A stretch of DNA of 64,000 bases from Macrotrachela quadricornifera. Lineage: Eukaryota; Rotifera; Eurotatoria; Philodinida; Philodinidae. Positions 34,857 through 64,000 of the stretch are shown one piece after another. The notes below the pieces were generated by a model, which worked only from the letters and a program-made list of their open reading frames with translations, did not search any database and had not been told where the DNA came from. A program made the position numbers and the translations under genes. The DNA lies in NCBI GenBank assembly GCA_022393335.1, contig JAJEKB010020648.1, positions 828,508 through 892,507 of the forward strand. Reading direction: 5' to 3'. Position 1 is the first letter of the stretch. Each line of letters opens with the position of its first letter.

Positions 34857-36717
34857 TCAACAGTGTAAGAGAACGCCAATATTATCTGAATTAAGGTTTG
34901 CGACAACAATATCTGCTTTGCTATCACCATTCACATCGATTACTGAGACTGATTTTGGAGAAGAACCACTTCCAGTTGAGTGAGTAGTTTGATTAAGAAA
35001 GGTACCATTGCCTGCATTCAGGAAGACACCAACATTGTTCAAACCAAAGTTTGCGACAACAATATCCGCTTTGCTATCACCATTCACATCGACTACTGAG
35101 TCTGACGCTGAAGAGGAATAATTTCCAGTTGAGTAAGTAGTTTGATTAAGAAACGCGCCATTGCCTGCATTCAGGAGAACACCCACATTGCCCGAATCAC
35201 GATTTGCAACAATAATATCTGCTTTGCTATCACCATTCACATCGACTCCTGTGAATGATCGTGGAGAAGAACCACTTCCAGTTGAGTAAGTAGTCTGATT
35301 AAGAAACATGCTGCAACCTATCAAGTACAAAGTTTTTTTCGTTACAACTGTAGTATTATAGAAGTAATGTCTTATCAGCGCATTTTATTGATTCTTCAAC
35401 ATTTGATCTCAGTGACTAGTCAACGATGAACAACAGCATGTAGACTCATTTTGTATAATCTCTAGTGCTCTAGAGAGTAACTAACATAAGTTTTTCTTGT
35501 AATCCGTGTGCCTTCAAATGCACTCTTCTCTCTACTTGAAAAGAACCAAGATTACTTTGCTTTTGTTTATTTATCTACAAGCTTGTCTTGAATGATTACA
35601 CTTCTCTTCTTCTTCTTCTTTACCATTTCTCTGATGTGACAATCCTATTCACAATATTCTTCTGTCAAAACTCAGCTTATGACATGCTGCACTTTATCTA
35701 TTGCATAAAGGAGAAAAGATTGTCCTTTGCGTGCTTCACTAAGCTACACCGTAGGTACAGACTTTGAGTTAATGGCATTATATTCTGGATGAGAATGGAC
35801 GAAAGCATGCTTCATTTGAATGTTGTGGGTATGCGTGTGAAGGCATTTTCTTTCGTTATCTATTCTCACCTAGACGCACATGTACATTTGTCCTCCAAGT
35901 TTATATTACTTTAAACTCAGTGTTTTACCTGTTACTGTCGTGGTCTGTGTTGTAACAATGTTACTTCCGTTGCAAGTGTTGTTCGAATCTACAAAAGAGA
36001 AATGAAATATTAATAGCTCCTGTATTTATTCTTCAACAAAATTCTAGATCCTGGATGGAAAGAGATTAAGGTAAACAATCAAGTATCTCTATAATGCTGA
36101 TCTAACTGTCAGATCATTTGTTGTCACTTAAAGATGCAAGACAGTGTGAACTTACAATCACATTTGTTGTATGACTGACAAGTCAAACCAAGATCCGTGC
36201 GACACATATTCATGTTCTGTTGACACTCTGTACATGCTAGTGGTGATTGAGGTAAACACATACTTTCATTCCAATAAGTATGCTGTTGACATTGACACTG
36301 ACCATTAACACATCTTAAAAATCGAGTATTATCACAATAATCACACGATTGATTATAATTCTTCCAATCTGCTTCGAACGAGTGTATTGAACCAGCAATA
36401 GACGTTGATGATGATCCACGGATCATAGAACCTGTTGCAATTTGATCACCTTCAAATAATCGACATTGTTTAATACTTAAGTCAAAATTAAATGTCCGAC
36501 ACTGAAAATCGTTATGACATTTATAAGCACAGGCCATAGTGGTAGCAACAGACCAGTGGCTAAGAAACAGAGCATTCATATCGATTGGTACGAACTCGGT
36601 ACCGACATCTTCCAAATCAATGTATGATTGAGATGAAAATATATGTGAAATACAATAAGAAGTGAGAATGAAAATTAACTGATGAAACATGATAAATATT
36701 CTCTGATGAACAAACAA
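34857..36717 (-). CDS. Secreted PAN/EGF-like protein with FG-GAP repeats (three exons)
   Basis: Exons 36717-36156, 35988-35929 and 35317-34857 join in frame (phases 1 and 1) to give 360 residues. Residues 1-30 form a signal peptide (MFHQLIFILTSYCISHIF region). Residues 35-130 form a PAN/Apple-like domain with AYKCHNDFQCRTFNFD and KQCRLFEGDQIATGS. A Cys-rich EGF-like part (SCDYCDNTRFLRCVNGQCQC) and a Thr-rich linker come next. Exon 3 has three FG-GAP/VCBS units, each with a calcium-loop motif DVNGDSKADI(I/V)VAN and FLNQTTYSTG. Such beta-propeller repeats normally number six or seven; the third unit ends GVLLHC then stop, so the propeller is short. Donors are GTAAGT and GTAAAA. Probably extracellular adhesion or lectin-like. 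Confidence 0.75.
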
Positions 36718-38284: not shown

Positions 38285-39055
38285 ATAGTAATTTGATTGG
38301 TGGAACATCATACTCTCTATTTATTATAACCACTAATTTGATCTTTGCTGCCGACGAAATGAACTTTCCTATTTATATGTGGTTAAATGATTCTATTCAT
38401 TCATCTAGAACAATACCGGATAGTTTTTCAAGCCGAAGATCCGTTTTCGTTCATAACAATACTAACATTTATCTTGACAGAAGAAACTACACTAGTCGGG
38501 TTCTGCAGTAAACACATTTAATTATCTCAGTAGACTTTTAGTTGATAATGACTTCAATTAGTATGTGGTAGATTATCTTAATCATCGAATTCAGTTATTT
38601 CAAGCAGAACAGTTCATTGGCATGACTGTTGCAAAATCTACATCAATGAACATTACCATTACTCTTCATCGTCCAACTGGAATTGCATCAGATGGCGATG
38701 GTTACTAATACATCATTGATTGTAACAATTATCGTATGGTTCGAGGTAAATCAAATGGCTTTCGATATTTATTTGAATACACTGCTGCTGGTGAAGGATC
38801 GAAGCAATTATTCAATCACCGTCATATGGCTTTTGATAGTTATAGAAATAATTACGTTGCTGATTGGAGAAATAATCGAATTCAAAATTTCTTTACTGAA
38901 ATAATTCATGTGGTAAGTACAAAGAATATCTATAAGAAAAATAAATTTATTTGGATATTTTCTTCTATCATTAGTCAACATATTTAAATACTACTTATTG
39001 TGTTCAGGTAGAACAACAACCAATGTCACTTCAATCACCTCAACAACATTAATCC
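38285..39055 (+). pseudogene. NHL-repeat protein fragment, multiply frameshifted
   Basis: Successive frames read NLIFAADEMNFPIYMWLND, SVFVHNNTNIYLDRRNYTSR, MWYVDYLNHRIQLFQAEQFI, LHRPTGIASDGDGY followed by a stop and YIIDCNNYRMVRGKSNGFR, and MAFDSYRNNYVADWRNNRIQ. These are the strand-turn units of NHL beta-propellers (xxVDxxGNxYVADxxNNRIQ). A Thr-rich tail (GRTTTNVTSITSTT) follows, as in bdelloid NHL proteins. Several frame changes and stops make it a pseudogene. Confidence 0.75.
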
Positions 39056-44676: not shown

Positions 44677-44949
44677 CTAGCAACACCCATCAAGATAATA
44701 AGCACGACATTGCCAATATCGAGCAGCAGCAAGATAATCAGTAGTATGATCACAAGGACGATTATCAGCAGTATTACAACGACAATGACGAGCAGCAATA
44801 TCATGACAATTCACCTGACGTTTGTTGCGCACATGATTGAGAAAGTTATTCCTATTCTCATTGTCAATTGTGACCGCTTCTGCCATGAAGATTGTTGCTA
44901 CCAACATCAAGAGGGCAACCAAATGAAGAATTTTGATGATTTTTTGCAT
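44677..44949 (-). CDS. Small secreted cysteine-rich peptide precursor
   Basis: A 90-residue precursor. I chose ATG 44949 rather than the in-frame ATG at 45027 because a TATATATA box at about 45046-45053 would place transcription start near or after 45027, and because MQKIIKILHLVALLMLVATI then begins exactly at a signal peptide. A short propeptide ends at a dibasic site, HVRNKR, giving a mature peptide of about 45 residues starting QVNC. The mature part holds seven Cys in the order C-C-C-C-C-CC (HCRC, RPCDH, WQC, GCC at the C-terminus). The layout is that of secreted defence, venom-like or signalling peptides; the family is not recognised and function is unknown. Single exon. Confidence 0.65.
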   Translation of the reverse strand: MQKIIKILHLVALLMLVATIFMAEAVTIDNENRNNFLNHVRNKRQVNCHDIAARHCRCNTADNRPCDHTTDYLAAARYWQCRAYYLDGCC

Positions 44950-45043
44950 TGTTATTTGTTGCTGTTTGATGCTTGACGAAGAGATTGATAGATGAATATG
45001 AGCAAATATGGAAATGTGTTTTTGCATGGTCGTATGGCGCTAT

Positions 45044-46283: not shown

Positions 46284-46969
46284 TTACACATGGGCGTGGC
46301 CAGTCGTGTTGATACCCCAGAATCGATTTATCAATATGACTTCATCTACGCATTAGAAAAATCTGATTTTGTAATCGGTTATACCATATATACAATGCTA
46401 ATGATCTGTTATTGCTTCAGCTCTATATATTACTATGAACGGGATTTTCCAGATGTTCTTTGTTAAAGAGTGTGCTACATCGACTCTTCAAAAAAAATTT
46501 CAATTCTCTATTTGAAATGTCGTCTATAGGATGAGAGAGTACATCGAATTGAACATTTCTATCACAGAACTTCATAGTTTCAATGTGATCATGGACACAT
46601 CTTATCAATTCAAAGCCTGAAATGACCGAGTTCCAGCGCCTAATGCAATCAGGACTCTTCACGATTACATTGAAACTATGAAGTTCTGTGATAGAAATGT
46701 TCAATTCGATGTACTCTCTCATCCTATAGACGACATTTCAAATAGAGAATTGAAAAGTTTTTTGAAGAATCGATGTAGCACACTCTTTAACAAAGAACAT
46801 CTGGAAAATCCCGTTCATAGTAATATATAGAGCTGAAGCAATAACAGATCATTAGCATTGTATATATGGTATAACCGATTACAAAATCAGATTTTTCTAA
46901 TGCGTAGATGAAGTCATATTGATAAATCGATTCTGGGGTATCAACACGACTGGCCAGGCCCACATGTAA
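46284..46969. repeat. Large palindrome, 307-bp arms
   Basis: The left arm 46284-46590 and right arm 46663-46969 are near-perfect inverses with a 72-bp spacer. Examples are TTACACATGGGCGTGGCCAG against CTGGCCAGGCCCACATGTAA, and CTTCATAGTTTCAATGTGAT against GATTACATTGAAACTATGAA. No coding sequence is shared with known families; open frames on both strands are mirror shadows. Confidence 0.92.
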
Positions 46970-47258: not shown

Positions 47259-50040
47259 ATGAACACCAGAAGATTTCTTCGATGGTGTGGTGAACGAATA
47301 CGTCAATACAATCTTTTTATTCCTGATGGAGATGATTATGATGATGATGAATTAGAAGACCCAGCTACAATTGTCAAACATCAACAATATGCGACTCGAT
47401 TATATGTTCCTCTTCTGATCAGTAAGTAGAGAAAACTGTGAGCAATGAAAACAAAGAGTCTATCTAATACAGATACAAGTACTTTATTTTTGTCAGTGCC
47501 TGCTCTGCTCATGATAGAATTAAGAACAACTAATTCAAAGAATAGAAGTGACCATCTCGAAAAAAAAGGTTTTTACACTCAAAAAATGTCATTAGTCCAT
47601 TAGAAGCAATGCTATATTCTTATAATAAAATTAGGACCACTAAATTACGGCCGCAAAGTTAAGTCCAATTTCATTACTTATGGCACTAGTCATATTTTGA
47701 GATCTCAAATTTGACGAATTTTCAATTACACTTGCGAGTGTTTTATAATAAAAAAATCGTACATGTTTGGTGTAAGTTTCAGTGTAGATCTTTGTCCTTA
47801 GCTTCAACTATTGCTACTTTGAAGTGCGTGAGAAACTTGAAAAGGGAGATGTATACAGTTGGATTGATTGAAAGAAGAACATAACAATCTTTTTTTTACA
47901 GTTATTTTTTACATTCTCTTCTTGGTCGTCTTGATGAATCCGCCAAGTCTGACAGTTAATGTCTCAAACATTACGCCATCTCTCATCGATCAACTTCGCC
48001 TTCTATATGGTGAAACACTCTCCTGTCCATGCTCAAAAACTACTATGCCTTATCATGCGTTTGTTTCTCATACAATCTCATTCCATCCTGTGTGCTCGAG
48101 TATTTTTGTCAGCAAAGAATGGATTGAAGCACTCTATATATCAAATAGAAGCGCTTTCTTCGTGATGGATTTTCGAACAACAGCTGGTTCTCAAGTAAGT
48201 TAATATTTATTGTAGAATAGGAATCTTATCAAAGATGACAATCAGTAGTGTTAGACAATAATGTGACCTATTGTAGTACTGATAACACGAAAGGCATCTA
48301 TGGTGTTGAAGACAAATGACAAATGTTTCTGCATTGAGATTATTCAGTACGGACTTCTGTCTCGTTCATTCAAACTAAAATGACCTTGTACCAGGTTCTT
48401 TATCGTAAAAACGGATCAAGTTTACAAACTGATCCTATTCAATTAATTAACTAAACGATTGAGAATTTAAAACAAAGATTGGAGTTATTCTGCTATGTTT
48501 TTTTTCTAAAGGATCATCTAAAAAACACAACAGTAAAAGATGTATGATCTGATTTTTCTAGGGATGCACCGGTGACGGTGTGAAACCGGTCCATCGGTGG
48601 CACCGTCAGACCAGTCCACCGTATTTACGGTGGACCGGTGAACGCATTCGATACCTACGGTGATGACCGATGCATGCCTAGATTTTTCTTCATTGTTTCT
48701 GTTTCATTGTTAGAAATGAGGTAACAGAATTATGAAAGATGCAATTATTTTGAGTAGTGAAGCACAAGATAATGTTCCCTGTTTTAAACACATAGTTAGT
48801 GTTAGAAACTGTTACAATAATAACAAGACGCTCCTGTTTACCTAGTTGATTATTTAATTGATTTATCATGTCATCTGTGATCTTTTCTATATAGTTTGAA
48901 CTTCTTGCTGATTTTTGTTCGATTGCCAAAGAAACGGTTTTAGAAGCTCAGACAAATCTTAATGATAGCCAACTTGCCACAATTCAACTTCTCTCAGAAA
49001 ACTATCTTCGATCTCAAGTTGACGAAAACGTCAAGCTCGCTAATATTAGCATGTCTCTTCAATTCAACTCGGCTTTACAGTTCCTCCAAATATCAACTCG
49101 ATCGAACTCACTTGTTTCGGCCCTTAATACAAACACTAACATTCAATTAGAATTCTATCAGTATCCCGAAATACTAATAATACCCACCAAATACTTCGAC
49201 AGAAATACTGCTCGTAATGATCTCAGTATACTCGACTGTTATACTGTCAATTCAGTAACCCCAGCTGGATTCTACCCGTCGCCATATTGTGGAAACCTGT
49301 TTAGTCATGATGTATGGCCTGAAGACGTTGACAACGCCTTCACTTATACACCGACTGCATTTGCCATGATTGACGGTTTTTTTGGAGGATGTACACCACT
49401 AGGTGCCGTTTTGGCGAGCAAATTCGATTGTTTACACAATACTGACTGTCTTACACAATTTGCTAATTATTTTCCAAATCTCAATAAAGTATTCAGCATG
49501 CCCTCTTCTCTATTCCGAAAACAACTGACTTTTTTTATTTAGACTAACATCAACTGGAAGAGCCCTCTTCCACTACCTATTCAACAAAATGTGACTTTGA
49601 ATGATCGTCTGAATAACCTGTTGATTGAAAAATGGTTGAAAAACATTGATTATCAGAAATACTTTGATCAATGTGCACCTAAACAATGTACATACATTGA
49701 TACCAGTTATACTAGTTTGTCCTATACAGTCACTGTCTTACTTAGTCTTTATGGTGGTCTCGTCATAATATTACGTCTACTCGCTGTTTCTCTAGTGAAA
49801 CTTGCGTTCATATTCAAACGTCGTTCAGTAAATTCTGCGACTACTACCATATGTATGCTATTTTCGTTATGAAAAACATTCCATTAATCTTTTGTTTTGT
49901 AGCGCACAATGTGACATGCAGTCGACGATTGATTAGAGGGATGAAACAATTGAACTTGTTCAAATCAGTCAATAAACGATCAGCAAATGAGATTCTACAA
50001 CAACGCATCACCACACATATTTATGTGATATTGCTTGCAA
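47259..50040 (+). other. Unit 1 of the modular membrane protein
   Basis: Exons 1-4 encode residues 1-453. Exon 1 is cytoplasmic with an acidic DDYDDDELEDP insert, then YATRLYVPLLI entering the first TM helix. Exon 2 holds TM1 and the CPCS block. Exon 3 starts FELLADFCSIAKETV and contains EFYQYPEI, DCYTVNSVTPAGFYP and FFGGCTPLGAV. A 54-bp intron (49489-49542) is needed: its GTATTC donor and polypyrimidine TTTATTTAG acceptor remove what otherwise reads as a stop codon. Exon 4 carries LLIEKWLKNIDYQKYFDQCA, CTYIDTSY and TM2. Exon 5 is the cytoplasmic linker into unit 2 (HIYVILLA). Confidence 0.7.
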
Positions 50041-53000
50041 GTACGATTTTTTATTTCTAAAATCGCTCCAACTATATACATCGAAAGTTCAAATAGTTTA
50101 GTAAAAACACATATAGTTTATGAGTGAGGTATAAAAAACTCTGAAAGGATAAGTCTCCATAGCCCTTCCGTCTAGAATTACGGACATTGTACTGAAACTT
50201 TAGCCTGTGGCCTAGTATATACCAGTAGGTGGGATGAGAGTGTTTCGACCTGAGATTTTTCTCACGGAGAGGTCTATTGGTGAGGTGAGTGCTTTCTTTT
50301 TGCGATATTCAAGTCTCAAAAAAAGGAGAAAATTCTGGCATCTTTCGTGGGATTTGAGTGATTTTTGTCTTTTTATTATCTCGAGATCGAAGCACTCTTT
50401 TGAGCTGAAATTTTCAGAGCATTCATCTCACCAATATATCTTTCCATGGGAAAAATCCCAGGTCGAAATACTCTCATTCGACTTATTGCTAAATAACCAC
50501 GCCATAGGCTAAAATTTTACTAAAATGTCTGTAACTCTGGACGGAAGGGCTATGGGGACTTATCATTTTGGGGTTTTTCGTATCTCACTGGAGTCTACCT
50601 TATGCACAGGGTAAGAACTTGAAAATGATTTCATAGTTAGGGTCGTTCCCTCGTTAGACAGAGACTACCTAGGTAACAAAATTATAGTTTTGATTATTCT
50701 TGAGGCAATTATGTAAAATACGGAATGGTATTACATTTGCCTAAGTATTATGCAATTCCAAGGCTAACAAGATGTCTCTAATCAAACTGCCCTTATTTCA
50801 TATTTTGTCTTCCAGTATGAAAATATTTCTATGTTTTTTCAGAATGCATCATCAGCTACTCTTCTAATCTTCAATTACCATGTCAAGTTCTAGACTAACT
50901 CCATCAGATTCATTGAACATTGCTCTGAAATTTATGCTGCTTTTGAAAATAACGAAGTTCTTTTGATAAAGACACACAAGAGAAATGTTTGTTGATTGAT
51001 GTCAATAGAACAAAGGAAACGAGTTTTTTCCGAATGATTATTGTCGGTCCGCAGATCGCAGTGAAATGAGGAATCGAATTGAAGAGGATTGGTTCATTGA
51101 TATTTGATTACCTCATATTCATCAATAGTGGCAAAAGTAGATAAATGTGTAGACTAGTAATGAGATTGTTCGCTTCTTTTCCCTGCAAATGAAATGTTTG
51201 TGTTGGTAGAAAATGACAGAATTCATGCAATTCGCTTTCCCACATCTTCGAGAAACATTATTACAAATAGTGAGCCTTTTCTGAGAGTGATATAAAGCAC
51301 GGCTAAATCTCAAATAAAATCCTATTTCAATTATAATGTTTCCTTTTATACATTATCAGTTTATACGTCCTAATTATTACGGCTGAATTCAGACGTTTCA
51401 ATCAGTATGCTCAAATGTATATGTTGTTATCTATGTATTCATCATTTTGCTTTTAAATTTTAACAATGATACAATGATTTTCCACGGAAAGATTTGGCAA
51501 AATCAAATCTCTGCAGCAGCTTTTATGTTTTCGATAGTCAAATATAGCCGTTACGTCCTCAGGGTCACACAGTTACGTGTATGTTCTGATCTACAAATTT
51601 GGACATATAGCTTTCGTTGTACCGTAAAATCCATGTTGTTTGTATTAACATATACACATATAGAGATAAAAATGAAGTTACCGTTTTATTCTTTCATATA
51701 TATAGAAACATTGGATTGTGGCGAGATATAAAACTGACCTTTCTAATATTTCGATACCTTTTTGTTAAATCAAGTCGTATATTTGACTGGATACGGACAG
51801 TAACAATGTTCTTTTATCGTTTCTCAGGGCTATGACGAACCGAATGGACTCACAGAACCTTGTCTGTTTCCTCTAGGCTCTTTTCGACGAATAAGCTGTG
51901 CTAAATGCAAAATAAGCTTCTCGTTTTTATTAAAATTTATGAAGTATTAGATAAATAATTAATTAAGTTTAGTTAAACTTTTGTTATCCAAAGATTTTTT
52001 TTCTTAAGCTAAAACTGAACTCCCGGGAAAATCTTACGCACGGAGAAAACCCTCCAAAAATCCTAAATACCCTAGAGGAAACATTGAGAATTCTTCGTAA
52101 ACGATAAACATTTTTCAGCCAATGCACTGTTCACAGAAAAGTCAGATTCTTTCATTATGATATGGAGTTTTAGTAAAACATAATTATTTGCCAACGTTGT
52201 ATTCAATGAATAGAATTTTCAACTGAATCTTCATATCCTCCTTTTTTTTCAACCAAGTTTCACTTATCAGAAATGTCTATATAAATCATTCGGCAGCCAT
52301 TTTAGTGATACAGAAAAATCAATGAGCACGTATTTCAGTAAATATCGCAGAAAAGAATATCTTGAATAAGTGTTCCATGAGGCAATAAGATTGAACGATC
52401 TTTGAAAATTTTAGAATTAACGACGTGTTGTAAAATAGTATTTGAGAAGATACATCTAAAATAACCCTTTATTCTTTCATTATTTCGTTTCAGGTTCGAT
52501 GTTTATTCTTCTTCTATACACTGCATTAAATGTTCAAACAATGACAATATCTATACCGAATCCTAGGTTAACTACGTATAAGAATCTGCAGCAGTCATAT
52601 CCAAATACACTCAAATGTCCTTGTTCAAATGTAACAATGCCTTATTCTACTATCATCTCATTGTCTGCAACTTTTCATCAAGTGTGTCAGAGCGATTTTG
52701 TTAATGAATCATGGATAACAATGACGGCGCTACTATCCTCTGAAAGTAATAACTATCATGGTCTATACGATCCTCACTTTCGGCTATTATCTATTTTATG
52801 TCAACTAATTAACAAAACAGTTGATGATACTATTCGTCGCTTTACTCAACGTTCCTTAGTTACGGCAAATATGCTTACTGAATCTAATTTGATTGCTGAA
52901 TTGAGCACAACTCTCAATCAAACCATTAAAACGATGATAACCAGTTTCAATCTTCTCATTGATATAAGCAATCTTTTCAATCATGTCGATCAGCCTTTCA

Positions 53001-56000
53001 CTATGTCACACGATCCGTATTCTGTAGTCAATGTAAGATTTGGAATGAATCTTGAAGAGCTGCCACAGGTATGTTGCCAAGATAGTTGAAAGAGAGTGTT
53101 GAATCTCGAATAGACAACACATTTTTATTGAATCTTTATTTGAAAGCTAGAAATATAGACAGAGTAAATAGTTTAAGTCGTACTAATCAAGCAGAACACG
53201 ATTCGTCCTTCTTCTGTTTCGAGTGCACATTTCGTAATGTGATATTAAACAAGATCAGAAAGTAGTACGCGTACCGTATGTTAAAACGTGTTTATCGAAG
53301 AAAACACACATATGGTTGTCCTCATTGAATATTGATCTGGAAGTATACAGGATGATCCACAACTTTTCGGGCAGTTTTTGATCGTGAATAACTTTGATAG
53401 AAATAAGGTAGGGAACTTCGATCCTCGCCATCAGATAAAAAACATAAAGACGCATCGAATCGTATACAACAAGTGTTTTCCCCAGTTTTTTCGAAACTTC
53501 AATAGAGTTTTTTACATGTGTCGTATTCTGTAGACTGACTACAGAATTTTGCAATTTTCAGATACCTATTAGAACCACTAAGTGAAGGTTTACACGAGGA
53601 AGTAAGATCACGATCATTACCTCAAGTCATCCATCAGTTATACGTATTTTACTTCGAACTGTTAGCTGGCTTTTCCAGAATTTTCTGTGAAAAAATTCTT
53701 TTTTTCTCGTTTTTTTGATAAAAGACTTTTTTTGCGGCGGCTTGTCGAAGAATGATTGAGCAAGTCTCAAAAAGACATATTTAAAAAAGTAATTATATAC
53801 AATTCAATGTATCTTCATCTTTTTTGTCTTTTTTCCATCAGAAGCTAGTCACAATCAAACGCTACTCGTGATTTCTGCACCATCCTGTAGATTATCAATG
53901 TGAAGAACGGTGCTTTGATAAAACAAATTTTTGATTGACTCTACTAAAAACGAAGCTAATGATAAAATATCACTGTTCAGAAAAAAATTGCATTGCCGAA
54001 TCGTTTAATATTTTAAAAAGTATTGACTGGCATTGTGAGAGTAATCGAAGAAGCGAACAACTTTGAACTGAATTCAAATGATCTTACTTTGTCGGTTTCG
54101 TTCCTCGGTTTCTGAGCATTTGTAGTAACGAGAAACAGACTGGATTTTTGTTAGTGAATGTTAGATCACTTTGTCACGCAAACCTCACAGTTTATATGAC
54201 AACAACAACAGTATGCGACACCAAAAGCGCCAAAAATTTTCGCCTTCGTCGGATAAGTTAAATTCCACGTCATTTAGCCTATGAAATTTAGATCTATTAC
54301 GCTTTTTACCGCAGTCAAGTCTCATCATATCACCGCTTTTTCCTTTCATACTGAAACTGCAATGAGAACTTGAAAACTACATAAGAACAGAAAGTTTTCA
54401 TTATGAATTGAATCTTCCCAGGATCGAAGATCTCACTGCTTATAAACTACTAGTGTGTGTAGAGCGGAGAATTGATCATACAGGGTGGCGCAAAAGTTAC
54501 TCGGCAGTCTTGAATTTACGATAACTTTTGATAGAAAAGGGCTAGAGAGCTGCGGTTTTCACCATTCGAAAGAGCGTGTTTCACTGCATCTTTTCATGTG
54601 TTATTCAGCAACACATCAAAACGACGATATGTCTCACTCTTGTTATTGGTTTCATAGAATGCTTTTACTACAAATACTCGTTGTTCTGTAGTGAGCCGTT
54701 GTCCAACATTTTCAGCCATTATCAGATATAACTTAAGATGATGCACCAATTCAACGGGAAATAGAAAATACCAGATGGAAGTAGTAGCTTTATTCTCTTA
54801 ACTGGATGCAATTAAGACGATCACACGAAAAAGAATGAAAAACAGACAGTAATAAAAAATACGCTTCGTATTCTGTCTGGTGAAACATTCCTTTTCCTTT
54901 CATATCTTGCCACTATCAGTGTTTTACATTTATTCAGAAGAATGCATTGTAATAGGATGGTGGCAAAGAGAAGAAAGACAGAAAGTGCGAAGAACACAAT
55001 ACGTGCTCAAAGAGCATACAAACAACACGAGCTAGAAATTATTTGTCGATGAATAATGTATAGTCGATGAACGCTGGTGAAAGTTAGCAAGAAAACTTTG
55101 TGGAAATAAAGAGCAGTTATTTTGAAAACCATGGACGGATTATAATATCATCGATTCATTTTGCTGAATAACACATGAAAAGATGCAGTAAAACACGCTC
55201 TTTCGAATGCTGAAAACCGCAGCTCCCTAGCCCTTTTCTATCAAAAGTTATCGTAAATTCAAGACTGCCGGGTAACTTTTGCGCCACCCTGTAGTAAACA
55301 ATCAAAAAAGGGCAGGTGTGTACGGATAATAGAATTTCTCAGGTTATACCTTGATGTAAACTCTGTTTTTCAACATGAAATGTGTCGAATTCAAAGCGTA
55401 TGATGAAAAGTTCGACCATTCAATATGCAGTAAACATTATCTGACAAAAATCTCTCCTTATGACTGTTCGTTTGAAGTTTAATCGAGAAATTCATCGATT
55501 GCATTAGGTAGTAGCAATGAAGTAACACTATACTCAGAGGATTATGGTTTGTCCAGGTAGTACAAATTAATTATGAATCTGATAGTTTTGATTGCAAAAA
55601 AATAGGTCTTTCTACCACAAATTAGGTTTTAAACTGGAATACGATGCGGAACAGAACAGAACGTGAGGAAGTCGTCCTATACCCAGTGCTGATTTTGATT
55701 ATAGGAAGTTTCTCGAAATTGATGAACAAAAAACTGTCTCAAAACGTTAAATTGGTTTTTGCCAAGGATGTATCAGTGTTGGTATACTGACCATAGTGAG
55801 TCGGTGTTATTGATGCTTCTAGCAATCTTAGATGCTAACCAAGGCCAGTATATTAGCAAGCACCAAAGACGTGTTCAGTTACTGATGAACAAACTTACGC
55901 ATTTATATCACTAATCTCTGCAAACTTTAATACCCTGACATCAGTGTTCACGCATACACCGGCACTGATACATCCCTAATTTTTGCATGTCTTAAACGAA

Positions 56001-59000
56001 TACTGAAAGCTACAGACAAACTGCTTTTACCAGTGAAAAGTTCATTCAGCGCTCTAAAAACCTGTTGTTTGGGTAATTATTTTGAACAGGACCGTCTGAT
56101 AACTGAAAATGATCGTTCTTGAATTATCGCTCTTGAACGATCTGCAAATACTATAGTTTGTAGTGACTTTTGTTAGTGCTTTTCTCAAACATGTGTCGGA
56201 GTTGAGTTTAGAATTCAGGTGAAATTGGAATAATATTCATAATATCGATGGCAAATGGGAATAAAAAAATATACGAAAAATATTCATATTTGTATATTGA
56301 TCTCTCAACTCGCTTACATGTAATTCAATAATATTAATTATATAAAAAAAATTTTTTTCAAATGAATCATTTAGAGAAATTTTTGTTGATGATTCAAACC
56401 TAAATAAACGAAAGCAAATTAGTATCAACGATTATCTAAAATCGAAATTTCAAATCATTTCCGTTTTCTAATAATTTTTTTACGATTCTTAAAATCTTAT
56501 ATTTTTGTGAGATAATCATTAGTTTTCAATGGAAAGTCCTTAAAATCTGGGTAAGCTCAAAGGAGTTTTGGATGGGTTCAGCCCCATTCGGTACCGCCGT
56601 TATAATCAGACTGATAAAGACTTTGTGAACTGCAAAAAGAAGAAGAATATAGTCAAGAAAAATTAGTCATCTTCGAACACATCACACGTTTTTAATCTAC
56701 CAACCTTATGATACTATTATTATCTGGCGATGGAACGTCTCCAACTGTGAGTCTGAGTTTTGAATGGGATATATACCAGTCTGTAGAGCTCGACGAGCTG
56801 ATTCTGACGGTGCTTCATTTGCGCAAGGTAAGACTCGAAACATCATCCGTGTAGCATGGCGCTATCGAAGCTTCACTATCTCTCTAGGATATGATTGACT
56901 TTTTTAGGAGTCCATTGGATGAAGCTACTCGAGTTTTAATAGAAAACTATATCTCAAATTTTAAAAAGAGTGTTGGAAAAGGATAGTCTCAAAAGAAAGT
57001 TCACCGTCGTGTTCCAGTACGAAAGAGAAGATCTGTAGTTCTGCTCTTCGTGAAAGTTTCTGAAGTTCGATTTTTTAAAATTTGAGATATAGTTTTCTAT
57101 TACAACTCGAGTAGCTCTATCCAATGGACTCCTAAAAAAGTCAATCATATCCTAACGAGATAGTGAAGCTTCGATAGCGCCATGCTACACGGCTGATGTT
57201 TCGAGTCTTACCCTGCGCAAATGAAGCTCCGTCAGGAGAACCACAACATACCATCAGAATCAGCTCATCGAACTCTACAAACTGGCATAAATCCCATTCA
57301 AAACTGAGACTCACAATTGAAGACGTTCCCTCGTAAAACGACACTATAATAGAATATCCCACACAAATGATGATTTTTCAGTTGAGAAATGAAAGATGAA
57401 AGTTGTGTTTACAACTATAGTTTAGAATTCGTTATTTGACGTAGGTGTATTTTCGTTTAACTGGTATATCAACTAACAATAATGAATTAACGGACTGTAA
57501 TTGTGCCCTTAATCCTCAATGTCAACGAGCAAGTTTCATTTACGATTGGAAAAATGTACCATTATGTGGTAGTGTGTCTAAAGCGTCTCCTACAATGCCA
57601 GGAATGATGATAGGATGTTCAGTCATGGATTCCCTTCTACTCTCTACACTCGAGTGTTTATATTCCGAATGTTGCCTAGCAATCATATATCATTATATAA
57701 ATAAAACATATCTAGAAAGATACACTGGTATACCATGGTTCAATGCTCATTCTCTTATTGATGATCCTGGGTTAAGCAGTTATCCTCCAGATAGTCCTGT
57801 CAAAATGTTAGTTAAAGAGATGATGATTGAACAATGGAATTTATCCATTTCATTTGAATCTTATTATGAAACATGTGTACCGACTCACTGTGCATATTCT
57901 GATCGAATGCATACATACAATTTGGCTGGAATATTGATGAAGCTAATAGCAACAATCAGTGGTCTAACTGCTGTATTACGCCTCATTACACCATTATTCG
58001 TTAACTTGGTCTTTCATTTATTGAAGCCGAAAATCAAGCGACAACGGCAAGGTAATTACCAATAACATATATAAGAAAAGCAACGGTTTATCTCTTTTGT
58101 GAAACCCGAACTGAAAAGAAGTATTCAAGTGTTTATGGGTAGAAATTTGCAACCGCTATACCGCCTCCCCCACAGACCGTTACCGACATAGCAGAACTAG
58201 GCATCACAGATCGTTACAGACAAGCTTGGAATATTGAAGAGGGTGATTAAAAGGTTTGAACCATCTCAAAGCGCTAGCAATTCAGCATAATTAGGTATCA
58301 CACAGCGTTATCGACTAGCTAGAGTTCGTCATAGATTGTTTTTCATTGAATCAGTAAATATACTATACAATTTAATCATAGGAAGTCTTTTATTTGCTTT
58401 ATGGAAATTGTAACAGATGTATTGTGTTTCATATTTTAATCCTGCAGCGATTTATCCTAACAGGTTTTTAAAACCGTGAGCTTTTTCGAAATTTGATCAT
58501 TACATCTTTTTCACGAAGATTCATGTTCATCGAGGTTCGAAGAATAACAAGATTAGCTCATCTGGTATGCGAACGACAATTATGGGAACATGAGGATTGA
58601 GGAGGATTTCTGGAAATTGTTTTAGGAGGATTAAGGAAGGGTATTATTATTTGCCGAAAAAAAGACATTTTTTTACACTTGGGACGCATCAGCATAGTTA
58701 AATCTAATGAAGTAAGAAGTTCAATTGAACCTGTGAGAATTTGCATGTAGATTTCTCAGCACTTAAAAAACAGAACATAATATGCGTTGATCAAGCGGTT
58801 TGTATATTCAGATAGCTACGCTGAAGAAGATTGGAAGGAGTTCTGAAGGAGATAATATATCTACTCATTAGCGGATCTTTGTTTTGATTGAGTCGTAAAT
58901 AAACAAAATCAGGTTTATGCGATCATTCTGCGACTTTGAATCGCAAAATCTTTGAAAGATTTCAAACCTTTTGGGCAAATAATTGTATAAAACTTTGAGA

Positions 59001-62000
59001 ATTTATGAGAACTGACAACTTTTGACCCAAGAAACTATAAGAAAACGATTTTTTCCATTCACATCGTATCCATGTCTTTCAGCTAGAAAAATTTAATATA
59101 GATGACTTATTTTATAGCAAATAAACTTTTAAGCACGTTTCATTTTGAAGAAAGGTAAGGTATGACATACAACGTTAGAACTCAGATGAATTTTTACGAG
59201 AGAACATACTTAGGTGTCCAAGCCCTTTAGGTTCCATCTTTTGACGATAGACAGACCTCAGCGATGTATGACAAAGCTCAAGAGGATTCGTGCCCTCGCG
59301 CCGTTGTTCCCGAGTTACGATCGTTTTACTCTAGTTTTTCCTCACGGCAAGGTATTTCAAAAAAATTCGATTGACCCAAGTCCGACCTGAAATTTTGCCC
59401 ATAGATAGGTTTCACTGGCACTAGATTGTTCTACAAGTATCAGCTAGAACGGATGTTTCCTTCACGAGATAATCGAATTTTAAAAAATCCTGCATTTTAT
59501 CGATCATTCGAAAAAAAGGTATGATGGAAAAAGGAAGAATGGAAAAACGTCGAAGAAAATAAGGAAAAATATAGAAAGAAAAAATATCGACGGGAAAAAT
59601 GTCGAAAGGAGAATAGTTGTCATACGTGACAAACATGTCGGATAGTTAATTATTCTTCTTTTGATTGACTGATGTGACCGATTGTTTTTATTATTGATTG
59701 TTAGAGTGTATGTTTTCGTTACTTCCAATATGTTGCCTACTCCATCCAACACCATTTTGTTTCTCACTTCGCAAAAAATGAAAAAGATGCAGAATTTAGA
59801 GAATTTCATCTTTAAATTGAGTAAAGCAACAAGTAACAAAAAATAATATCACTACTTTGACCAACAATATACTATGACAGTACACACAGATCATAATGAT
59901 ATTGTCCCAAATATTAAGGAAGATCATTGGGATCCACTGAGTCTGAAGGAATAAATTCTCACTCGTCTTCAAATTCACAAATATTCAAATACCATCCTGA
60001 TATTAGGTTTTTACCAAATGTACACAACGGGATGAGCATATATTTAATCATTTCTTGTTTCTAATGAAAGATGGTCTTACGGATCAGCGAAAAACAAAAA
60101 AAAACTACAAAAAAAATTGATGCACTCTGTGCTTATAATGATAATAGTGATATTATTGGCAACGAATTTTCAGAAGGTCTATCTTTTGTTATCGCCAAAA
60201 ATATCAAATCAAAAAAAGAAATGAGAAACGATCATTTTCTGTACATGATATTCAATCAGAGTGTTTACTAAACCCCCGTCGTAATAAAAGACTCCGGGTC
60301 TTCTATTATATTTCGCAAAACATCTTCAAATTTTCAGCCTTTTCCATGGTCAAAAACACAAAATCAATAGGGAAAATTTTCTGAAAGGGATCTTCTATTT
60401 TGCAGGGGGCGGTATTATTATTCATATTTTTCGTTTATTCAATGAATTTTATAATAAATTTATGCACATTGTTTCTGATAGTGAAATTGAACTTTCGACA
60501 TTTTCCTTCGTCATTTACCGTTTCGACGTTTTTCCTTTCTTCTTTTTTCCAGCCATTCGAAAAAAACTGATCTGCCTCGAAAACTTATTATCTCGTGAAG
60601 GAAAAATTCGTTCTAGCTGATACTTGTAGAACAATCTAGTGCCAGTGAGACCTATCTATGGGCAAAATTTCAGGTCAGACTTGGGTCAATCGAATTTTTT
60701 TGAAATACCTTGCCGTGAGGAAAAACTAGAGTAAAACGATCGTAACTCGGGAACAACGGCGCGAGGGCACGAATCCTCTTGAGCTTTGTCATACCTCACT
60801 GAGGTCTGTCTATCGTCAAAAGATGGAACCTAAAGGGCTTGGACACCTAAATATGTTCTCTCGTTAGTAATACAAAATAACCAACTTAGATAGAACTGCT
60901 TTTGTAGCTGTCATTTTTGGCGATCTCAAAACTCAGTAATGTCTGGAAAGTGTATCATCATATATGACAAGCATGCTCTCTGAGAATCCTATAGAATATG
61001 ACTGAGAGTTTGACGTAAAGTAATGGAAAATCAAGCAGTATTAGACTTTTGGAAGTGAGTTTTTGTGTGTTCATCGGCCAGAATGCTGCACAAAAGTATG
61101 TGACATACGAAAAAGACACCTGCATGACACGACACGTGAATTTCGATTAGATTGTATGCAACAGCTGCTGAGTTTTGAAACAAAAGTAACAAAAAGGAGG
61201 AAAAGGAGGAGCATTCACATACCAGGCTCATCGACAAAAATGTAAACATATTTATTGAGAATTCATTTTAGACTTTTTTAATAAGTCGTTTTCGAATCTA
61301 ACGATCAGTGACGTTCTGAATAGTGAATCTGCAAACTGAGTCATGAAAGTATTATGTGCATATTAATCTATGTTTCGTGACTATACAAAAAATAATCTTA
61401 TCTTCTCCTTTCAATGTAGTTCGCCCAACGTTGATCATTCGAGTCCAAATGTTATTGCGACAGTTGTGTGCATATTTGTACAGAAAACGTCTCGATCTAA
61501 ATATGTTTCCTTTACGCACATTTGGAAGTAATGTTGATCGAACAAGAGCCAAACGTCTCGGTCAATTGAGTACTCGTCTCTACATTGTTCTTCTTATGAT
61601 CAGTTTTGTGATTGCAACTCTCTATACTATCATTCAACCTCAACGTCTGACCAAAACTTTTGAAAAACCATCATTCGATTTCTACAAGCAGCTTCTGATA
61701 GATCACAATGACTCACTTCAATGTCCTTGTTCATCCATTTCATCGATGTATAAAGATTATGTCACAATTAAACCATCGTTTCATCAGGTAATCCAAAGCG
61801 GATATTATGAAGGTTCTCAAGAATAGAGTATAACCTCAAGTTTCTTTTCCAGACTAATTTTGAAATGTCACTCTCATATAGAAGCTAGATCATTATCTAT
61901 AATTTATTTTGCTTCGTAAAATTATTATATGATCATCTATTCCCTCATTTAGAATTAAAGATAATCAATAAAGAAGAAACCGTCTCGCTCTTTCTAACAT

Positions 62001-62549
62001 TTTCCAATATTAGTCTATTGCACAAAATTTGAAAACTTTACAGATATTTCGTCCTGAAAAGTAGGAAAATGATGAACGATAATCGTGAGAATTTTGAGAT
62101 CTACTTCATGGTCTGATATAATTCTTTTTTTTCACTTGGTATCTGATAGATCTGTTTGAATTCATTTGCTGTTGATCAATGGCGAAAGAAACTCACAGCT
62201 GGTCTTGTTCCTGATCTTTCTGTCTACGATGTGAAAGACTATCGTCGTTTTCTCTCAGCTCACCTACAATTTCTGACTGGATTATGTAATCTATCAATGC
62301 AATCAGTCAACGATGCCGTTTTGCAATTCCTTTCATCAGCATTGATCACTACTCAACTTCAATCGCTAGCAGTTTTTCAAACGCAAATTGATTCGCTCGT
62401 GATAAACAGTAAATCAAATGCTCCTACAACCATTGCTCGTCTTCTTGCTTTACTTCGAACAACAAATCACGGCAATGTTATCATATCAACATATGGAACA
62501 AATTTCGAATATTTCTTTCCTTTTTGGTGTCATCAGTATGTCGGTGGCG
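47259..62549 (+). CDS. Large modular membrane protein, three tandem units, nine exons (3' end not found)
   Basis: Exons: 47259-47421, 47902-48194, 48895-49488, 49543-49852, 49903-50040, 52494-53068, 57445-58051, 61420-61787, 62150-62549. Every junction is GT-AG and phase-compatible, giving at least 1,149 codons. Each unit repeats one plan: a basic cytoplasmic segment (RRFLRWCGERIRQYNLF; RRLIRGMKQLNLF; RQLCAYLYRKRLDLNMF), a TM helix, an ectodomain opening with LSCPCS/LKCPCS/LQCPCS and SFHPVC/TFHQVC/SFHQIC, then LLIEKWL/MMIEQWNLS plus paired Cys, and a second TM helix (YGGLVIILRLLAVSLVKLAF; SGLTAVLRLITPLFVNLVF). Unit 3 is seen only to its mid-ectodomain; a donor GTAAGG follows at 62550. I associate this plan with an uncharacterised family expanded in bdelloids. 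Three separate genes is the alternative, but units 2 and 3 then lack starts. Confidence 0.65.
48559..48680. mobile_element. 122-bp hAT-type MITE with perfect target duplication GATTTTTC
   Basis: It starts TAGGGATGCACCGG and ends CCGATGCATGCCTA. GATTTTTC flanks both sides (48551-48558 and 48681-48688). The interior is GGTGGACCGGT-rich and palindromic, with base composition unlike its surroundings. It sits in intron 2 of the modular gene. Confidence 0.93.
50041..52493 (+). other. Intron 5 of the modular gene (2.45 kb) with a foldback element
   Basis: Donor GTACGA, acceptor TTTCGTTTCAG. It holds the palindrome 50125-50588: arms share TAAGTC(T/C)CCATAGCCCTTCC, GACATTTTAGTA-like and TTAGCCTATGGC words, with the centre near 50350. 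The remaining 1.9 kb has no recognised feature. Confidence 0.6.
50125..50588. repeat. Foldback palindrome (GGAAGGGCTATGG family)
   Basis: Near-complete hairpin of about 465 bp with almost no loop. Internal words (GACCTGAGATTTTTC, AGGTCTATTGGTGAG) resemble the foldbacks at 59196-60864 (GACCTGAAATTTTGCCCATAG) and 63626-64000 (TCTGAAATTTTGCCCACAGA), so the three appear related. Confidence 0.75.
53348..53887. mobile_element. Probable mariner-type MITE (CAGGATGATCCACAA / CACCATCCTG)
   Basis: The ends CAGGATGATCCACAACTTTT and the inverse ...TTTCTGCACCATCCTG pair loosely and are flanked by TA on both sides (53346-53347 and 53888-53889). No gene. Confidence 0.55.
54481..55291. mobile_element. mariner-type MITE, 811 bp, TA target duplication
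   Basis: Terminal inverted repeats of about 140 bp start CAGGGTGGCGCAAAAGTTAC and end GTAACTTTTGCGCCACCCTG, flanked by TA on both sides (54479-54480, 55292-55293). The arms also contain AAGAGCGTGTTT and TGCATCTTTTCATGTGTTAT. The internal 0.5 kb is non-coding. Confidence 0.88.
55763..55978. mobile_element. hAT-type MITE, 216 bp, near-perfect target duplication
   Basis: It starts CAAGGATGTATCAGTG and ends CACTGATACATCCCTA; the right end is the canonical TAGGGATG form and the left end carries two substitutions. The flanks GTTTTTGC (55755-55762) and ATTTTTGC (55979-55986) match at 7 of 8 bases. Confidence 0.8.
56742..57329. repeat. Palindrome with 225-255-bp arms
   Basis: GGAACGTCT...GAGTCTGAGTTTTGAATGGGAT at the left is mirrored by ATCCCATTCAAAACTGAGACTC...AGACGTTCC at the right. 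The inner ends are AACTATATCTCAAATTTT / AAAATTTGAGATATAGTT around a spacer of about 105 bp. It lies in intron 6, ending about 115 bp before exon 7. Confidence 0.88.
58052..61419 (+). other. Intron 7 of the modular gene (3.4 kb) with a long-arm foldback
   Basis: Donor GTAATT, acceptor TTTCAATGTAG; phase 1. It contains the foldback 59196-60864. The sequence at 58080-59190 and 60870-61350 shows no recognised gene. Confidence 0.55.
59196..60864. mobile_element. Foldback element with 279-bp arms
   Basis: Left arm 59196-59474 (ACGAGAGAACATACTTAGGT ... TTCACGAGATAAT) and right arm 60586-60864 are near-perfect inverses, for example GCCCTCGCGCCGTTGTTCCC against GGGAACAACGGCGCGAGGGC. The 1.1-kb centre includes further imperfect inverted stretches (AAAACGTCGAA / TTCGACGTTTT) and no clear gene. 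Confidence 0.88.
61420..62549 (+). other. Unit 3 of the modular membrane protein, partial
   Basis: Exon 8 starts with the basic linker VRPTLIIRVQMLL, then LSTRLYIVLLMISFVIATLY (TM), LQCPCSSISSMYKDYVTIKP and SFHQ. Exon 9 continues ICLNSFAVDQWRKKL, FLTGLCNLSMQSVNDAVLQF and YGTNFEYFFPFWCHQYVG up to a GTAAGG donor. No further exon with LLIEKW-like or TM2 sequence is visible before 64000, so the gene runs off the window or is broken. Confidence 0.65.
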
Positions 62550-63163
62550 GTAAGGATGCCTGTGATTCGAAGATGAGATGATATGAAAGTTTCTGTGGAG
62601 AACATCGCCCTTGAACGAGGATATTTACATCAAAATTTTAGTACGGAAAAGTATATTCTGACAAAGCGTTAACTCACATGTCAGACATTCTACCAACTAC
62701 ATACTTGACAAAAAATATTGCTTAGAATATAAAAGATCAAATATTCTTGCTTAGTATAGATGAATAAGTATTGTGTAATTAGTAGATAAAATAATACATA
62801 GGGTGTCCAGTAAGTCGGTGGCCAACGAAAAATTTGAATATTTTCATTAGGCTTCAATAAAATGCGCTGACATTTTTTAGTTTTTACTGACGAAAGAATA
62901 ATATATACTCATGCGCATAAAGCGAACATACTTTGATTTACTATATTACTAAACAGCACCAAAATTATGGGGTATTCTTGTATTTGCTTATTAAACATCA
63001 TAGCTGTTGTGTAATGAGATAACATTTATACGAAAGAGATTGACCTTCGTTATACAAGTAAAAAATAAGGTCTTTTCATATGAAGGTTATACAAGTTCAA
63101 ACCTTCTTCTGTACAAAATATTGAATGGCAGCGTCTAGAAGAAATATTTAAAAGTCTCTATAC

Positions 63164-63455: not shown

Positions 63456-63625
63456 CTCTATACAAATAGACTGCATTACATTATGGCCTAGAAAGGTTCT
63501 TACGAGGAATGATCCCCGACTGATAAATCGGTTTGGGGTTCGGACTCTGTGCATAAGATAGACCTTGGTGTGGTATGAAAAACGCCAAAAGGACAAATGC
63601 TATCAGAACTTCTGTCCAGATTTAT

Positions 63626-64000
63626 AGACAATTCACTGGAATTTTAGTCACTATTACGATATAGACCAGAAAATCGAATGACGGTATTTGATCTGAAATT
63701 TTGCCCACAGACAGGTCTATTTGTAAATAAGATGCAATGAAAAATTCGGCTCAAAGGGATGTTTTCTTCCTGAGATATTAAAATCTCAAAAAAACAGAAA
63801 ATATTAACATTTTTCGTGGGATATCAATGACTCTTCGGGACTTTAATATTTCGGGAAGAAAACATCCTTTTGAGCCGAATTTTTCGTTGCATCCTACTTA
63901 CAAATAGACCTATCTGTGGGCAACATCTCAGGTCAAAATACTGTCATTCGATTTTCTGGTATATACCATAATAAAGACTGAAATTCCAGTAGATTGTCTA
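63626..64000. repeat. Foldback palindrome at the window edge
   Basis: TAGACAATTCACTGGAATTT (63626) pairs with AAATTCCAGTAGATTGTCTA at 63981-64000. Inner words such as GAATGACGGTATTTGA, GCCCACAGACAGGTCTATTT and GAAAAATTCGGCTCAAAGGG have mirror partners. The arms may extend beyond the window on the right, since 63540-63625 also resembles the outer arm of the 50125 element. Confidence 0.8.

What the first reader, a model, noticed from the sequence alone, without database searches (positions are those of the whole stretch)
47259..62549. A giant gene built from at least three tandem copies of a two-TM, Cys-rich module
Nine exons spread over 15.3 kb join in compatible phase at every junction. They produce three successive copies of one module (basic cytoplasmic linker, TM, CPCS/FHQVC ectodomain, IEKW/IEQW block with Cys pairs, TM). 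Units 2 and 3 begin mid-helix or with linker sequence, without their own start region, which argues for one polypeptide with six or more TM segments and alternating ectodomains. I know of no named function for this architecture. It could be a receptor, adhesion or transport scaffold.
Basis: partly seen in the sequence, partly recalled or inferred. Interest (0 to 1): 0.82.

Follow-up and report, generated by a model that had tools for sequence, protein, structure and literature searches.

The report
Triple-unit rotifer surface protein with propeller
A gene from what looks like a bdelloid rotifer codes for one long membrane protein made of three copies of the same two-pass module plus a seventh membrane pass and a seven-bladed propeller; it belongs to a large gene family with no assigned function and no named relative found outside bdelloids.

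Summary
The nine exons are GT-AG and in phase. They align end to end with one annotated Adineta vaga protein, 583 of 1162 positions identical. Three more exons beyond the window complete unit 3 and add a seventh membrane segment and an FG-GAP propeller with seven motifs: 12 exons, 20.5 kb, 1787 aa. Three ordered units, some only partly seen, recur in 13 of 13 loci read in this genome; none of 204 relatives has more. Units cluster by position in 16 of 20 proteins, so the triplication predates the main radiation. The unit has no convincing Pfam, PDB-sequence or fold match. A relative's whole model has pTM 0.75, which suggests the units pack together. dN/dS is 0.38-0.51, higher in the propeller. 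My reading: a lineage-specific, multicopy surface receptor with a covalent pseudo-trimeric membrane core and a faster-evolving head. A pore is possible but unshown. No expression data were available.

The parts
47259..47421 (+). exon 1: start codon, cytoplasmic N-terminus, first part of TM1 of unit 1
   Evidence: GT-AG, phase 0; aligns with residue 1 of P0001
47902..48194 (+). exon 2: rest of TM1 and CPCS / HPVC start of the unit 1 ectodomain
   Evidence: 69% identity to P0001 53-152
48895..49488 (+). exon 3: unit 1 ectodomain
   Evidence: 147 matches of this reading frame in the own genome, 150 of 566 candidates scored
49543..49852 (+). exon 4: end of unit 1 ectodomain (IEKW, CxPxxCxY) and TM2 with GGLxxxLR
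49903..50040 (+). exon 5: cytoplasmic linker and first part of TM1 of unit 2
52494..53068 (+). exon 6: rest of TM1 of unit 2 and first half of its ectodomain
57445..58051 (+). exon 7: second half of unit 2 ectodomain and TM2 of unit 2 (SGLxxxLR)
61420..61787 (+). exon 8: linker, TM1 and start of the ectodomain of unit 3
62150..62549 (+). exon 9: middle of unit 3 ectodomain; donor GTAAGG at 62550. Unit 3 ends, and TM7 and the FG-GAP domain follow, beyond the window (exons 10-12, extrapolated 64783-67769)

Best explanation
One polypeptide of 1787 aa. Shown from sequence: three tandem homologous units, each TM - Cys-rich ectodomain of about 330-340 aa - TM, then a seventh hydrophobic segment and a seven-motif FG-GAP (beta-propeller) domain. 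Inferred: N-terminus inside, the three ectodomains and the propeller outside. Inferred: the units pack against each other as a covalent pseudo-trimer, so three copies per chain are a structural requirement. Inferred: the propeller is the ligand- or surface-binding head of a multicopy receptor/adhesion protein known so far only from bdelloids, and the six-TM core transmits or anchors that contact.
For: Single chain: all 11 introns GT-AG, one open frame to a stop; colinearity with P0001; 13 of 13 own-genome loci with three ordered units, 11 of 13 with an FG-GAP exon after them; a unit and nearly all of the next in one 818-aa frame in L035; dN/dS 0.51, 0.40, 0.38 against three paralogs, over 1502, 1704 and 1533 of 1787 codons. 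Three: 0 of 204 proteins exceed three. Old triplication: 16 of 20 proteins have each unit in its own position group, SH-aLRT 97-99, quick search without bootstrap. Packing: pTM 0.75, pLDDT 79 for a 1186-aa three-unit relative; my estimate is that unrelated unit placement would give about 0.4. Head: Pfam FG-GAP_3 2.6e-46, seven motifs, dN/dS higher than in the units in 997, 1000 and 926 of 1000 bootstraps for three paralog comparisons; a few relatives are annotated with NHL or EGF domains instead (table).
Against: No RNA or protein evidence of expression. The packing argument rests on one AlphaFold2 model of a relative (P0088, 24-30% identical to the other rows), and I could not see its coordinates or error matrix. 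Many relatives show only one or two units (92 and 38 of 204). I read most of these as fragments, but five own-genome loci with about two visible units were not resolved. Faster evolution of the propeller may be relaxed constraint: dN/dS stays below 1 there, while two small other segments exceed 1 (TM1 of unit 2 against C4555, 1.12; TM7 region against C4374, 1.07). Units of P0083, P0085, P0088 and P0096 lie outside the main position groups, and those of P0088 and P0096 do not sort by position at all. NHL and EGF heads may be gene-model fusions.
Confidence: 0.5

Rival explanations
1. Pore-forming version: the covalent pseudo-trimer is a ligand-gated ion channel that works like trimeric two-TM channels (P2X, DEG/ENaC), with TM2 of each unit lining the pore and the propeller as sensor.
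Confidence: 0.2
2. Plain adhesion or surface-coat protein: the units are a rigid multi-anchored stalk and only the propeller contacts something; no signalling or conduction.
For: FG-GAP in 32 of 97 relatives and NHL or EGF in a few (my count of the table); Cys-rich ectodomains with most of the 23 N-glycosylation sequons (two, at 456 and 1365, lie in presumed cytoplasmic linkers).
Against: TM2 of unit 3 is more constrained than the TM7 region in all three comparisons (0.29 v 0.53, 0.17 v 1.07, 0.33 v 0.38), so it is more than a plain anchor.
Confidence: 0.25
3. Three separate tandem single-unit genes, not one polypeptide.
For: Introns of 2.5 and 3.4 kb lie at or near the two unit borders; single-unit gene models exist in databases.
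Against: Units 2 and 3 have no own start; positional clustering of units; nearly two units in one uninterrupted frame; 13 of 13 loci with the same order; single-unit models P0107 and P0116 sort with unit 1 and unit 3 of three-unit proteins, as fragments would.
Confidence: 0.04
4. The window gene is a decaying copy in a family with many pseudogenes.
For: Many family hits in the genome have in-frame stops, though some may come from reading past an exon end.
Against: Twelve exons intact to a stop codon; dN/dS 0.38-0.51 against paralogs.
Confidence: 0.05

Closest known systems
Unnamed bdelloid family, e.g. A. vaga I4U23_027312 (P0001), A. ricciae P0002, Rotaria P0083
   Same: Three units in the same order; P0002 and 31 others of 97 also carry FG-GAP domains (my count of the table)
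   Different: Only 'hypothetical', 'unnamed' or 'uncharacterized' in the names seen, apart from labels such as 'Transmembrane protein' or a head-domain name; no description in the listings and passages searched
P2X receptors and DEG/ENaC/ASIC channels (recalled knowledge)
   Same: Two TMs around a Cys-rich ectodomain; three such parts make one assembly; strands next to both TMs
   Different: Parts are fused in one chain here; no listed sequence match, no significant fold match; TM2 has GG...[RK]...P, not the channel motifs as I recall them; extra TM7 and propeller
Integrin alpha subunits and other FG-GAP/VCBS propeller proteins (recalled knowledge)
   Same: FG-GAP repeats with seven [DGN]FNxDxxxD motifs
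   Different: Here the propeller follows seven TMs at the C-terminus; integrin alpha is single-pass with an N-terminal propeller (recalled)
FG-GAP families reported as expanded in A. vaga (PMC3846280, passages seen)
   Same: Bdelloid, multicopy, FG-GAP
   Different: The passage only lists FG-GAP among expanded families; no architecture is given in the passages seen

Membership tests
Bdelloid three-unit family (P0001 type) | Three ordered TM-Cys ectodomain-TM units in one frame | tested here: met
Bdelloid three-unit family (P0001 type) | Units fall in the position groups u1, u2, u3 | tested here: met
   WIN_u1, u2, u3 each in the matching group of 16 rows (SH-aLRT 97-99)
DEG/ENaC (ASC) channels | Pfam ASC profile match | tested here: not met
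   not listed for units 1 and 2 at E up to 10 nor for 38 single-unit relatives at E up to 1; unit 3 was scanned only in pieces
DEG/ENaC (ASC) channels | ASIC/ENaC fold | tested here: inconclusive
   no such chain listed by Foldseek or VIA; absence from the list does not exclude it
P2X receptors | Pfam P2X profile match | tested here: not met
   not listed
P2X receptors | P2X fold and ATP site | tested here: inconclusive
P2X / DEG/ENaC | Trimeric pore that conducts ions | not testable with these tools
   needs electrophysiology
FG-GAP propeller proteins | FG-GAP repeats above the Pfam cut-off, about seven | tested here: met
   PF13517 156.5 bits (cut-off 26.9) and PF01839 74.2 (22.1); seven motifs
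Integrin alpha | N-terminal propeller on a single-pass chain | tested here: not met
   propeller is C-terminal after seven membrane segments by hydropathy and alignment
Rhodopsin-like 7TM receptors | 7tm_1 profile match over the TM bundle | tested here: not met
   not listed for units 1 and 2; one of 38 single-unit relatives at E 0.0057; here the TM pairs are split by ectodomains of about 330-340 aa

The most novel reading that the evidence does not exclude
A natural covalent trimer: a ligand-gated channel whose three two-TM subunits were fused into one chain before Adineta and Rotaria split, leaving the three positions free to diverge, with a propeller sensor added at the end in many members, and then multiplied to something like a hundred loci as the animals' own class of environment-sensing receptors.
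Probability: 0.17. Interest if true: 0.88.

Novelty: categorically new. Interest (0 to 1): 0.64.

Why it matters
A large protein family sits in databases without a name, a domain model or a solved relative that I could find. One exon of it has 147 matches in this genome; only 150 of 566 candidates were scored, and split hits and alleles are not separated. Its build is regular: three units in each of 15 loci read (13; C4559 and, with the table, C4511), often with a propeller. If the core is a fused trimer it would parallel, for two-TM proteins, the fused four-domain build of sodium and calcium channels (recalled), and give a set of testable surface receptors for animals known for asexuality, desiccation and foreign DNA (recalled). 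'Categorically new' refers to the protein family and its architecture, not to a proven mechanism.

Tried and rejected
Three separate tandem genes: rejected. Genes with two units: several relatives of about 780 aa (P0138-P0141) look like two-unit proteins. By their sequences P0138 resembles units 2+3 of P0088, and P0137 holds units 1+2 and the start of unit 3 (read by eye). For C4511, where the listed hits showed two units, a further unit (second half seen) was found 2.6 kb upstream. In eleven further loci (C4255 three times, C4062, C4278, C937, C4514, C4835, C4675, C898, C4170) a match to the unit 1 exon lies upstream of matches worth about two units, read by eye from the two tables. About five loci (C4980:413 kb, C3916, C3880, C4140, C1910) were not resolved, so genuine two-unit members are not excluded.

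The 'open_frame_aa' value 1345 shown for C4559 was not reproduced: the stretch holds frames of 447 and 826 aa with stops between. I do not use that column. A first look at L003/L004 as alleles gave no usable alignment, probably because only one strand was read; it was not pursued. A hydrophobic moment for TM1 was uninformative because of gappy columns. In the dN/dS comparison with C4555, exons 8 and 9 and some linker were missed by the chain, so unit 3 is only partly covered there. Plasmid search with exon 1: no match. A literature search on trimeric channels and tandem subunits was seen as a listing only and is not used.
Full report
What was checked. Read on its own this could be a lucky chain, so I compared it with relatives. 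Of 7995 scored candidates 97 proteins matched: 92 named Adineta, 3 Rotaria, 2 unnamed (my count). The best, A. vaga I4U23_027312 (P0001), aligns over the whole joined length at 583 of 1162 positions, across all eight junctions. Two further searches added 39 and 68 proteins; those with a species name are Adineta or Rotaria, but most are unnamed metagenome proteins. So 'bdelloid' is an inference for the window and for the unnamed relatives.

The gene is longer than the window. The window lies in contig C4261 of a 450-Mb assembly. The next 20 kb hold the rest of unit 3, a seventh hydrophobic segment and an FG-GAP domain. Splicing them gives 12 exons, 11 GT-AG introns and 1787 aa with a stop, close to P0002 (1767 aa). 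The last 368 aa match FG-GAP_3 (2.6e-46) and FG-GAP (6.4e-21) and hold seven [DGN]FNxDxxxD motifs, which suggests a seven-bladed propeller.

Three units. A unit profile finds three units of more than 250 profile columns in 57 of 98 proteins (97 relatives and the window), two in 28 and one in 13, never more. Over all 204 proteins of three searches, counting partial units, the tally is 92 with one, 38 with two and 74 with three, none above. This tally is biased: two searches used single units with a length cap, and many metagenome proteins are about one unit long. The direct test is genomic. I fetched 12 paralogous loci, all plus-strand hits without stops in the matched exon, and added the window gene. 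All 13 show three units in order and 11 show an FG-GAP exon within the 20 kb read. Not every unit is seen in full: in C4582 unit 2 shows only its second half, and in several loci the first exons of unit 1 were missed or cut off. These loci were not spliced. At C4559 there are also three, one unit and nearly all of the next in one 818-aa frame. At C4511 a further unit was found upstream of the two first seen.

Age of the triplication. In a tree of 72 units (20 of 39 eligible three-unit proteins including the window, plus 12 other rows; quick search, SH-aLRT only), units of 16 proteins fall in groups by position with support 97 to 99, and the window's units sit with their own positions. The Rotaria P0083 and A. 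vaga P0085 units also pair by position, with single-unit rows among them, but outside the main groups. P0088 and P0096 do not sort by position and have long branches. So the fusion is older than the main radiation, and the positions have diverged since.

Assembly. A 1186-aa three-unit relative (P0088, with 58 of the 97 proteins in the alignment) was modelled at pLDDT 79 and pTM 0.75. If the units were placed without relation to each other I estimate pTM near 0.4, so the program seems confident in how they pack. I could not see coordinates. This and the number three suggest a covalent pseudo-trimer; it is an inference.

Selection. Against three paralogs dN/dS over all aligned codons is 0.51, 0.40 and 0.38, so the joined exons look translated and constrained. 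The propeller evolves faster than the units: 0.70 against 0.44, 0.65 against 0.31, 0.45 against 0.35, with 997, 1000 and 926 of 1000 bootstraps (own NG86 code; with Biopython gives 0.74, 0.67, 0.46 for the propeller). Unit 3 is the most constrained part in two of the three comparisons (C4555, C4374), not against C5005. Two short segments exceed 1 (1.12 and 1.07). Relatives carry FG-GAP in 32 of 97 cases by my count of the table, NHL in P0036, EGF and NHL in P0076. This looks like a conserved core with a faster-changing, perhaps exchangeable head. Relaxed constraint would look similar.

Mechanism. Most likely a lineage-specific surface receptor or adhesion protein: the propeller binds, the pseudo-trimeric core holds or transmits. 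A channel is the bolder reading. The topology and number fit trimeric two-TM channels, and TM2 has a conserved GG and basic residue on an amphipathic helix (161 of 5000 shuffles, stretch chosen after seeing it), but there is no sequence or significant fold match, so it is not filed as a member.

In print. Searches for bdelloid or Adineta with FG-GAP found one paper, PMC3846280, of which I saw passages; it lists FG-GAP among expanded A. vaga families. Three wider searches (listings only) showed no title or abstract start describing this family. Most subscription papers are not held.

Noticed in passing
window 44677-45039 (-): ORF whose inner part reads like a small secreted Cys-rich pre-pro-peptide: hydrophobic leader after an internal Met, a KR site, then seven Cys.
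   Followed up: no
window 46284-46969: Inverted repeat with 310-nt arms, 97% complementary, 66 nt apart, just upstream of the gene; both arms carry mirror ORFs.
   Followed up: partly
window 50123-50589, 54479-55293, 56728-57333, 59196-60864 and 63625-64000: Further inverted repeats with 65-278-nt arms, transposon- or MITE-like by their look, inside introns 5, 6, 7 and 9; they account for part of the intron length.
   Followed up: partly
window 34860-35354 (-): Stretch similar to the FG-GAP tail of relatives (43% identity to P0007 1630-1776), apparently another FG-GAP gene in the same window.
   Followed up: no
window 38496-38906 (+): Stretch similar to the tail of P0076, a relative annotated with NHL and EGF domains (37%, E 4e-19).
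   Followed up: no
P0094 (A. vaga, 729 aa): One unit joined to an N-terminal domain that the database marks PF03496 (ADP-ribosyltransferase type, recalled name); may be a gene-model fusion.
   Followed up: no
G000 C4385, C4427, C4559: A second branch of the family has units of about 430-480 aa in one open frame each, at C4559 with two units in one frame, unlike the many-exon layout of the window gene.
   Followed up: partly
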